Made by a program: the position numbers and the translations under genes. This document shows positions 26,501 through 27,653 of a stretch of 34,502 nt of DNA, one piece after another. Numbering within the stretch: position 1 is the first letter of the stretch; every line of letters starts with the position of its first letter. The notes under the pieces are model-generated. The model was given only the letters and a program-made list of their open reading frames with translations. It ran no database searches and was not told where the DNA came from. The DNA is from Clostridiales bacterium (lineage in GTDB: Bacteria; Bacillota; Clostridia; Christensenellales; Pumilibacteraceae): the NCBI GenBank assembly GCA_022508485.1, contig JAFLVD010000021.1:1-34502 (forward strand), read 5' to 3'.

Positions 26501-26530
26501 ATTATACCATTTCCACGCCCCTAATGTCAA
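26501..26530 (-). promoter_or_regulatory. Promoter of uvrB
   Basis: On the minus strand a consensus TTGACA (26525-26530) and TATAAT (26501-26506) are separated by 18 bases. The leader is about 23 nt and carries AGGGAAAG. Confidence 0.8.
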
Positions 26531-26582: not shown

Positions 26583-26611
26583 AAAATAACAGCATTTTAG
26601 CACAAAAAAAG
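26583..26611 (-). repeat. Post-terminator repeat, copy at unit 1
   Basis: On the minus strand the U tract of unit 1 is followed by GTGCTAAAATGCTGTTATTT. The same element follows unit 5 (27184-27213), and a diverged copy follows unit 6 (27335-27361). The repeats show that units arose by duplication. After unit 1 the element is followed by a decayed start of a further unit (GCGTAAAAATCGG). Confidence 0.8.
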
Positions 26612-26673
26612 AAACGAGCTTGGTAAGTATCTAACCGTAGTTGTTAGTAACCATCCAGTCGTATCTCGTTTCT
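26604..26673 (-). ncRNA. Small RNA unit 1 (about 70 nt)
   Basis: The promoter is TTGATT (26703-26708), 17 bases, TATAAT (26680-26685). The predicted first base, 26673, is the first base of a 9-bp stem (26665-26673 with 26610-26618) that closes the RNA. It is followed by seven U, so it also serves as the terminator. Inside, CUAAC/GUUAG (26643-26647 with 26631-26635) and UGGU/ACCA form one extended hairpin. The sequence before the 3' arm, UACUUACCAAG, recurs almost unchanged in unit 5. The spacer of the promoter is nearly identical to that of unit 5. No known RNA family is recognised. Confidence 0.8.
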
Positions 26674-26719
26674 GTAATTATTATACGCTTGTTAGCGGTA
26701 AAAATCAAGCGTTTTACGC

Positions 26720-26783
26720 AAAAAAAAGAGTTACAGCTCCGCCCCGAAGGCTATGCCTTGCTATGCAAGGTCGAAGTAACTCT
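26720..26783 (-). ncRNA. Small RNA unit 2 (about 64 nt)
   Basis: The promoter is TTGACA (26813-26818), 17 bases, TAAAAT (26790-26795). The predicted first base is 26783, the start of an 8-bp closing stem (26776-26783 with 26727-26734) followed by eight U. Inside are a perfect 6-bp hairpin CCUUGC/GCAAGG (26765-26770 with 26756-26761) and a short GC hairpin around UUCG (26741-26751). The outline resembles unit 3, with compensating changes in the closing stem. The U tract touches the promoter element of unit 1. Confidence 0.8.
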
Positions 26784-26887
26784 TTATAAATTTTATACTT
26801 TCATCTTTAAAATGTCAAGCGTATTCGCCGCATAAAATAATGTAAAAATTACACCGCAATACAACCTGCAATCGTCAAAAAAAAGAC

Positions 26888-26953
26888 AAAAAAGAGTTGC
26901 AGTTCGACCCGTTCGGTCATTCCCACAAGTTTGTGGGGTGCAAAGCAACTCGT
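26888..26953 (-). ncRNA. Small RNA unit 3 (about 66 nt)
   Basis: The promoter is TTGATT (26983-26988), 17 bases, TATAAT (26960-26965), with the first base predicted at 26953. The closing stem GAGUUGC/GCAACUC (26945-26951 with 26894-26900) is followed by six U. Two arms lie inside: CCCACA/UGUGGG (26932-26937 with 26922-26927) and GACC/GGUC (26915-26918 with 26906-26909). This gives a three-way junction like unit 2. About 65 bases with no clear unit lie between this terminator and the unit 2 promoter. Confidence 0.8.
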
Positions 26954-26999
26954 AAGTTTATTATATATTACTTTTTATAAAAAATCAAGCCTTTTATGC

Positions 27000-27136
27000 A
27001 AAAAAATCGCAGGCATGTTACTTTAAGCTCCTGCGATTGAAAGAAAGATATTTACTTTCTTTCCTGTGATATTAACGACGGACGTGTACGCCTTGCGCTT
27101 TAAGCTCAAAAGTCCTTGGGGGAAATCGTCGTTCCT
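27000..27136 (-). ncRNA. Small RNA unit 4 (about 137 nt)
   Basis: The promoter is TTGATT (27167-27172), 17 bases, TATAAT (27144-27149). This longest unit has three structures in a row. A 7-bp stem AACGACG/CGUCGUU (27127-27133 with 27074-27080) encloses about 46 nt. A perfect 9-bp GA/CU hairpin follows (27055-27063 with 27039-27047). The terminator is separate, 9 bp (27030-27038 with 27005-27013), then seven U. The ten bases CTTTAAGCTC occur twice on the plus strand (27021-27030 and 27098-27107), once in the terminator loop and once inside the first stem. Unlike the others, its 5' end does not pair with the terminator. Confidence 0.72.
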
Positions 27137-27183
27137 GCTTGTTATTATAAACTATTTTTTTGTAAAAATCAAGCGCTTTACAC

Positions 27184-27213
27184 AAAAATAACAGCATTTT
27201 AGCACAAAAAAAG
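27184..27213 (-). repeat. Post-terminator repeat, copy at unit 5
   Basis: This copy is the same 20-base element as after unit 1. It sits between the unit 5 terminator and the unit 4 promoter element. Confidence 0.8.
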
Positions 27214-27284
27214 ATAGCCTTGATAAGTAACTTGTCAGCGCAAGTACCACTCACGAGAGATTGTAGTAATCTCATGACTATCTT
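27206..27284 (-). ncRNA. Small RNA unit 5 (about 79 nt)
   Basis: The promoter is TTGATT (27314-27319), 17 bases, TATAAT (27291-27296). The first base predicted, 27284, begins a 7-bp closing stem (27278-27284 with 27211-27217) followed by seven U. Two arms lie inside: GAGAUU/AAUCUC (27268-27273 with 27257-27262) and ACUUG/CAAGU (27241-27245 with 27230-27234). Promoter spacer, first transcribed bases and the sequence after the terminator are nearly the same as in unit 1, but the RNA interior is not. Confidence 0.8.
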
Positions 27285-27334
27285 GTAATTATTATACACT
27301 TGTTGGCGGTAAAAATCAAGCGCTTTACGCAAAT

Positions 27335-27361
27335 AGAACAGCATTTTTAGCATAAAAAAAG
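27335..27361 (-). repeat. Post-terminator repeat, diverged copy at unit 6
   Basis: The form here is ATGCTAAAAATGCTGTTCTA, with a few changes from the copies after units 1 and 5. It sits between the unit 6 terminator and the unit 5 promoter element. Confidence 0.75.
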
Positions 27362-27445
27362 AAAGTGCCACGAGCTTTACGCTTCTTTCCGTGGGGGCTC
27401 CAAGGACGAAAGCTATAAACGCTAACACCGAGCCAAACACTTTCT
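27354..27445 (-). ncRNA. Small RNA unit 6 (about 92 nt)
   Basis: The promoter is TTGATT (27476-27481), 17 bases, TATAAT (27453-27458). An 8-bp closing stem (27438-27445 with 27360-27367) is followed by seven U. Two arms lie inside: GGCUC/GAGCC (27430-27434 with 27396-27400) and CCACG/CGUGG (27390-27394 with 27368-27372), the second stacked directly on the closing stem. It is the most upstream unit of the array in the direction of transcription. Confidence 0.8.
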
Positions 27446-27539
27446 GTTTGTTATTATACTCCCATGCTTATAAAAAATCAAGCGTTTTACGCAAAAAATC
27501 ATATACATAATTACAATAAAGAAAAGATAAAAAAGCACG

Positions 27540-27566
27540 AAAAAAGGCTTGAAAAACAAGCCTTTT
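27540..27566 (-). terminator. Terminator downstream of the HPt/coiled-coil genes
   Basis: A 9-bp hairpin (27543-27551 with 27557-27565, loop of five A) is followed on the minus strand by six T. It ends the leftward transcript of the signalling operon before the small-RNA array begins. Confidence 0.88.
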
Positions 27567-27653
27567 AAAGCGTGGTATCATCGTATTATTTTCACGGTAA
27601 GCCAACCGAGAAAAAGTAGGTTCGTTGTCGGTTATAGCTACGACACCATACGC
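27540..27653 (-). ncRNA. Candidate further small RNA or structured 3' region
   Basis: A TATAAT (27659-27664) without a good -35 box precedes a structured stretch. Bases 27641-27653 can pair with 27570-27580 in a bulged stem of about 11 bp that begins at the predicted start. AACCGA/UCGGUU pairs inside. A separate terminator follows at 27540-27566. It could be a diverged seventh unit or simply the 3' untranslated region of the gene at 27721. Confidence 0.4.

What the first reader, a model, noticed from the sequence alone, without database searches (positions are those of the whole stretch)
26604..27492. Array of six independent, self-closed small RNA genes with no known counterpart
Seen directly: six leftward promoters with the same 17-base spacer, each 64 to 137 nt ahead of a stem plus U tract, packed into about 0.9 kb without any protein gene. 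In units 1, 2, 3, 5 and 6 the predicted first or second transcribed base begins the 5' arm of the terminator stem, so the finished RNA has both ends paired. RNAs share promoters, size and architecture but not interior sequence. That is unlike CRISPR (no constant repeat or spacer size), riboswitches (no downstream gene) or copies of one sRNA. A family of very stable RNAs with variable targets or ligands would explain it. The function is inference.
Basis: partly seen in the sequence, partly recalled or inferred. Interest (0 to 1): 0.93.

Follow-up and report, generated by a model that had tools for sequence, protein, structure and literature searches.

The report
Chromosomal array of filamentous-phage small RNAs
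A gut bacterium carries six small RNA genes in a row, four of them of kinds that also occur inside filamentous-phage genomes at a recurring position, which may be an RNA-based protection against such phages.

Summary
Six leftward units, each a promoter with a 17-nt spacer and a short RNA ending in a stem plus T run, fill 26604-27492; five are self-closed. No Rfam family matches. 'No known counterpart' fails: A, C, D and E (D and E are one family) have homologues elsewhere, and these three families each occur inside filamentous-phage (inovirus) prophages. There the RNA gene lies opposite the phage genes, its 3' end near the stop codon of a small, usually Lys/Arg-rich gene. Other RNA families (M, Q, I, R) occupy the same slot in other prophages. 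Mixed arrays with no phage gene in the fetched stretch recur elsewhere (A+DE+Q; H+DE+N+M+K+Q; C plus two). The closest relative has the same flanking genes but no array. The window's genome has one more such RNA abutting an inovirus gene fragment. I read the array as a chromosomal collection of phage RNA cassettes. In the phage each RNA is antisense to any transcript running through its locus, so the likeliest function is silencing of related phages (immunity or anti-addiction). That function is inferred; there are no expression data, and B and F have no homologue yet.

The parts
27354..27445 (-). Unit A RNA (closing stem AGAAAGTG/CACTTTCT); family found in inovirus prophages
27453..27481 (-). 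Promoter of unit A (TTGATT-17-TATAAT)
27206..27284 (-). Unit B RNA, self-closed; no homologue found
27291..27319 (-). Promoter of unit B
27000..27137 (-). Unit C RNA (5' helix, then two hairpins, the last with a conserved AGGAG..TAACATGCC stretch); homologues inside the G018 inovirus prophage and in a G026 array
27144..27172 (-). Promoter of unit C
26888..26953 (-). Unit D RNA (family DE: closing stem plus two hairpins)
26960..26988 (-). Promoter of unit D
26720..26785 (-). Unit E RNA (family DE; homologue inside the G113 inovirus prophage)
26790..26818 (-). Promoter of unit E (TTGACA-17-TAAAAT)
26604..26673 (-). Unit F RNA, self-closed; shares a TACTTAYCAAG stretch with B (by eye); no homologue found
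26680..26708 (-). Promoter of unit F; a 23-nt core in the spacer before F is identical to one before the RNA gene in the G016 inovirus prophage
26594..27632 (.). Segment replaced by about 70 nt in the closest relative G015, whose flanks align at 86% and 81%

Best explanation
The array is a chromosomal collection of small structured RNA genes of the kind that inoviruses (filamentous phages) of gut Clostridia and Bacilli carry as cargo. Shown by sequence: the units are promoter-RNA-terminator cassettes; three families (A, C, DE) covering four of six units occur inside inovirus prophages; there the RNA gene is convergent with phage genes and ends near the stop codon of a small, usually Lys/Arg-rich gene; multi-family arrays without phage genes in the fetched stretch recur in other lineages. 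Inferred: a phage transcript that runs through the slot carries the complement of the RNA, so an RNA made from the chromosome would pair with the transcript of an incoming phage of the same RNA family and silence or destroy it: homology-dependent superinfection immunity, or neutralisation of a phage addiction module. RNA families would then act as immunity groups, and an array would cover several.
For: Unit A: 15 loci of genome contigs; covariance model, 5 of 396 order genomes. Unit C lies inside a G018 prophage with Zot (PF05707), G2P-type Rep (PF23343) and an rve transposase. DE lies inside a G113 prophage with Zot above the Pfam cut-off. In the 13 modules tabulated the RNA is on the opposite strand and its last stem base lies -26 to +66 nt from the stop codon, 12 of 13 within -26 to +27 (a chosen set). 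No terminator-like site on the gene strand in 8 of 9 regions, L124 being the exception. Arrays: G354 A, DE, Q; G167 H, DE, N, M, K, Q (M and K matches are weak, E 3e-4 to 0.02); G013 J, H, G; G026 C and two more by eye. Covariation: A, 6 pairs and 13 cells changed on both sides, 0 of 500 shuffles. Array absent at a conserved site in G015. Unit G in the window's own genome abuts a frame matching a gene of the G016 prophage (38% over 132 aa, E 4e-19). A 23-nt promoter core is identical between unit F and the RNA gene of the G016 prophage.
Against: No transcript or phenotype data. B and F have no homologue. The window holds no phage gene remnant (only a DnaJ match). Conserved RNA cores in distant hosts suit a conserved protein target as well as antisense. 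Outside its own locus an RNA shows no clear complementarity to its prophage: longest match 9-12 nt in 18 tests, 2 of 18 exceeding the best of 20 controls by 1-2 nt. DE covariation is weak: 2 pairs, 61 of 500 shuffles as high; for A the count of further pair types is not special (94 of 500). Of 13 loci with a Zot match, 9 have a recognised RNA; none was recognised in the stretches scanned of L179, L182 and L183, and L186 has only a short Zot match. Of the 13 modules, 11 were found through the RNA or its promoter and R by looking for this arrangement, so 13 of 13 is not a frequency. L131 is an exception left out of that table: pieces of the neighbour gene lie on the same strand as the RNA. In 5 of 15 A loci no neighbour-gene match was found. 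G354's contig is only 3.7 kb.
Confidence: 0.45

Rival explanations
1. Anti-addiction bank: the small basic gene in the phage is a toxin, the convergent RNA its type I-like antitoxin, and the chromosomal copies are orphan antitoxins that protect cells that lost or resist the phage.
For: Placement like SR6, an antisense antitoxin in an SPbeta prophage operon that overlaps the 3' end of its toxin gene (PMC5848175, abstract). Recurrent gene/RNA pairing. In A loci the RNA remains where the gene is truncated (L130), in pieces (L131, L133, L138) or not found (L125, L129, L134, L135, L137).
Against: The gene products are 116-234 aa, K+R 0.12-0.32, AILMFWV 0.20-0.29 (13 modules), unlike the 28-60 aa toxins with a transmembrane domain described in PMC6563280 (passages). 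No Pfam family in the five of these proteins scanned, no PADLOC family in six.
Confidence: 0.2
2. Trans-acting structured RNAs that work through a protein or a host target (for example decoys against a host defence, RNA polymerase or a nuclease), different families having different targets; phages carry them as swappable cargo and hosts keep them for another benefit.
For: Sequence cores conserved between Clostridia and Bacilli (the search pattern fixed both ends, so part of this is by construction) and swapping of some helices (P4 of A variants; closing stem of Q, by eye). The G167 array lies about 1.8 kb from cas9 and cas1 genes. Prophage sRNA svsR acts on host genes (PMC12803456, abstract).
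Against: No partner protein identified; one array near cas9 is an anecdote; this reading does not by itself explain the recurring position near a stop codon.
Confidence: 0.2
3. The units are DNA elements of the phage (complementary-strand origin or packaging signal) and the arrays are inert debris.
For: In L132, L134 and L140 the element lies in the gap before Rep, the position of the intergenic region of M13 (M13 layout recalled). The RNA would be complementary to the phage gene strand.
Against: Promoter, start-flush stem and T run are kept in arrays without phage genes, where debris would be expected to lose them. In L232 and L178 the elements lie among other phage genes, not before Rep.
Confidence: 0.07
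4. Host small RNAs with ordinary regulatory roles that inoviruses picked up, the arrays being the ancestral state.
For: The promoter core resembles promoters ahead of ordinary genes in related genomes (a LacI-type regulator in L034, a tRNA-synthetase-like gene in L107; labels by eye).
Against: The families are rare: A in 5 of 396, DE in 4 of 233, C in 2 of 233 order genomes. Their loci differ between genomes, and the array is absent from the syntenic site in the closest relative.
Confidence: 0.08

Closest known systems
SR6 and other prophage antisense antitoxins (type I toxin-antitoxin)
   Same: About 100-nt RNA on a prophage, antisense at the 3' end of a gene in a polycistronic phage transcript (PMC5848175, abstract)
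   Different: Partner gene long and basic, not a small toxin peptide; many unrelated RNA families; RNA arrays without the partner gene
Prophage sRNAs of superinfection exclusion (STnc6030 of BTP1, sas of P22; svsR of NC-SV)
   Same: Prophage-encoded RNAs that limit other phages (PMC12197685, passages; PMC12803456, abstract)
   Different: Single RNAs of other phages; here several families, in inoviruses and in phage-free arrays; function not tested
Inovirus superinfection exclusion genes
   Same: Inovirus prophages carry exclusion functions (PMC6813254, 12 of 31 passages seen)
   Different: Those in the passages are proteins; no small RNA gene appeared in them
CRISPR array
   Same: Chromosomal row of short phage-related RNAs
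   Different: No repeat-spacer structure; each unit has its own promoter and terminator

Membership tests
Rfam RNA families | Match at or above the curated score | tested here: not met
   0 matches in the window; array at E<=5 only a 10.4-bit hit; six related loci at E<=1, six hits all below cut-off
Type I toxin-antitoxin | Antisense RNA overlapping the toxin mRNA | tested here: inconclusive
   convergent placement near the stop codon in 13 tabulated modules, L131 an exception; overlap needs read-through of the gene, not shown
Type I toxin-antitoxin | Small hydrophobic toxin peptide | tested here: not met
   116-234 aa, K+R 0.12-0.32
Type I toxin-antitoxin | Toxicity relieved by the RNA | not testable with these tools
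   needs an expression experiment
Inovirus-borne RNA cassette | Same RNA family inside a prophage with Zot and/or Rep | tested here: met
   A: L124, L126, L127, L132 (Zot), L134 (Rep only in the 8 kb held); C: L140; DE: L232. No homologue found for B and F
Superinfection-immunity RNA | Confers resistance to a phage of the same group | not testable with these tools
   no phenotype data
CRISPR array | Constant repeats with unique spacers | tested here: not met
   the longest repeats are promoter stretches 64-90% identical to the reference copy at spacings of 147-280 nt
Riboswitch | Structured leader ahead of a coding gene | tested here: not met
   units end in their own stem and T run; uvrB after unit F has its own promoter at 26530-26501

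The most novel reading that the evidence does not exclude
A protein-free heritable immune memory: bacteria collect the immunity RNA cassettes of filamentous phages into chromosomal arrays, each RNA family defining an immunity group, so that the array silences incoming phages of several groups by RNA pairing.
Probability: 0.25. Interest if true: 0.95.

Novelty: new variant of a known kind. Interest (0 to 1): 0.78.

Why it matters
It links RNA families absent from Rfam to inoviruses and shows that they also stand in mixed arrays where no phage gene is seen. If the immunity reading is right, bacteria store protection against filamentous phages with RNA alone. If not, it still gives concrete RNA families with homologues, models and a recurring genomic slot for finding out what inovirus RNA cargo does.

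Tried and rejected
Chance: rejected by shuffles. Known RNA: no Rfam match. Viral contigs: six pattern scans gave no match. A seventh, for the last hairpin of unit C, gave 14 hits; a BLAST of unit C hit two of them over 23 nt only, and I took the rest as chance without further work. A protein scan for the A neighbour gene confirmed none. Phage and plasmid records: no match for the array or that protein. The protein has no match in 396 order genomes (whose answer says that an empty result there shows nothing). Its structure prediction failed (pLDDT 39), so no fold search was made; no PDB relative. Antisense targets elsewhere in the prophage: no clear signal. Promoter core as a marker of such RNAs: rejected, it also precedes ordinary genes. 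One further Rep locus, L148, is too short to judge. Literature: nine searches; among the titles and abstract starts listed I saw no paper on inovirus small RNA arrays; the library is open-access only.

Full report
OBSERVATION. Read on the minus strand, 27492-26604 holds six units without a protein gene, apart from one 122-aa GTG frame across A to C that I take as chance. Five promoters are TTGATT-17-TATAAT and one TTGACA-17-TAAAAT. The 2-kb region gave 10 promoter-like sites on both strands against 2.5 in shuffles; the extended core occurs 6 times in the window, 5 of them in the array, against 0.06 expected. A scanner made after seeing the units (promoter, stem of at least 7 bp starting 2-14 nt after the -10 box, T run) finds A, B, D, E and F and one other site in 34.5 kb, 1 site in twenty 2-kb resamplings and 0 in three of the whole window. 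Unit C folds as a 5' domain followed by two hairpins, so it is not self-closed. I name the units A to F in the direction of transcription.

SITE. The nearest relative by uvrB in that search (G015, N-terminal part 99% identical) has the same gene order. The flanks align at 86% (to 27633) and 81% (from 26593); 26594-27632 is replaced by about 70 nt. The array was therefore gained or lost recently. No inovirus gene remnant was found in the window with 94 frames from eight prophage loci as queries; the one match is DnaJ to DnaJ.

HOMOLOGUES. Unit A: 80% identical in G005, 73% in G078. A covariance model found 5 of 396 order genomes: G000, G005 and, new, G135, G323 and G354; in a class draw 2 of 391, G000 and G135. 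The structure has 6 pairs and 13 cells changed on both sides, 0 of 500 shuffles, while further pair types are not special (94 of 500); slid by 1-3 columns it is 43-59% paired. Invariance of the two pattern ends is by construction. Unit C: 69% over 135 nt in G018, 78% over 65 nt in G026; model: 2 of 233, G000 and G026, G018 not among the same-genus genomes listed. D and E: a model from E and a G354 sequence recovers D and gives 4 of 233: G000, G113, G167, G232; covariation among 5 sequences is weak, 2 pairs, 61 of 500 shuffles as high. B and F: none found.

PHAGE CONTEXT. G018 unit C lies in a prophage with a Zot-type ATPase, a G2P-type replication protein and an rve (IS30-like) transposase. 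G113 has DE and a second RNA, M, in one prophage with Zot, each convergent to its own small basic gene. A lies in the same kind of position in L124, L126, L127 and L132, all with Zot matches, L132 with a G2P-type Rep too; in L134 it lies before Rep and is followed by an M-like RNA. The A neighbour gene is matched in 10 of 15 loci: convergent to the RNA in 9, in pieces on the same strand in L131. G016 carries RNA I, G047 RNA Q and G054 RNA R in prophages. In the 13 modules tabulated the RNA is opposite to the gene, its last stem base -26 to +66 nt from the stop codon. Eleven came in through the RNA or its promoter, Q through a cross-match and R through a search for this arrangement. The 13 include unit G beside a phage gene fragment and L130 beside a truncated gene, and leave out L131. 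Of 13 loci with a Zot match, 9 have a recognised RNA; none was recognised in the stretches scanned of L179, L182 and L183, and L186 has only a short Zot match. No terminator-like site on the gene strand was seen in 8 of 9 regions, so read-through transcripts carrying the complement are possible but not shown.

ARRAYS ELSEWHERE. G354: DE and A on one strand, Q on the other, on a 3.7-kb contig. G167: H, DE, N, M, K and Q in about 0.8 kb, 1.8 kb from cas9 and cas1; DE there has no promoter of its own by eye, N and the promoter of Q are by eye, and the M and K matches are weak (E 3e-4 to 0.02). G013: J, H and G ahead of a class II (D/K/N) tRNA synthetase gene; G013 has a Rep match on another contig. 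G026: C and two sRNA-like stretches by eye, beside mgl-, miaA- and mutL-like genes next to which the G018 prophage also sits (labels by eye). With 94 inovirus frames as queries, no phage gene was found in L141, L175, L230, L231 or L223; the matches in L143, L176 and L222 and those in L221 fall on the RNAs themselves. L130 and L136 hold two and three copies of A with separate promoters; L138 has A and K and a 35-aa transposase match. H and K were seen in arrays only. The window genome's seventh unit (G, contig C5) abuts a frame matching a gene of the G016 prophage. The window genome has no Rep match; Zot was not sought genome-wide.

MECHANISM. Shown: cassettes, families, the phage slot, recurrent mixed arrays. 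Inferred: expression, and silencing by pairing. The antisense reading follows from geometry, since in the phage the RNA is complementary to anything read through its locus. It has no clear support from further complementarity in the prophage (9-12 nt in 18 tests, 2 of 18 above all 20 controls). Conserved cores in distant hosts leave the protein-target rival open. The closest precedent that I found is SR6, an antisense antitoxin at the 3' end of a gene in a prophage operon (PMC5848175, abstract), but size and composition of the partner proteins do not fit type I toxins.

LIMITS. RNA ends are predictions. The M13 comparison and 'IS30-like' are recalled.

Noticed in passing
26706-26719 and other array promoters: Imperfect palindrome GCGTAAAACGC / AAGCGCTT overlaps the -35 box in most units, like a LacI-type operator (recalled); a similar promoter precedes a LacI-type gene in G015 (L034).
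   Followed up: partly
L231 3150-9936: cas9 and cas1 genes (Pfam) lie about 1.8 kb from a six-kind RNA array in G167.
   Followed up: partly
L139 9030-9052: The RNA gene inside the G016 inovirus prophage has a 23-nt promoter core identical to that before array unit F.
   Followed up: partly
L126 1820-2794: The A-bearing element in this Clostridia MAG has a plasmid-type Rep_1 protein (PF01446) as well as a Zot match.
   Followed up: no
26501-26530: uvrB has a perfect consensus promoter (12 of 12, TG before the -10).
   Followed up: no
L130, L136 and L222: A variant of family A with the whole P4 hairpin replaced; it stands in tandem with the common form in L130 and L136 and alone in G135 (L222).
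   Followed up: partly
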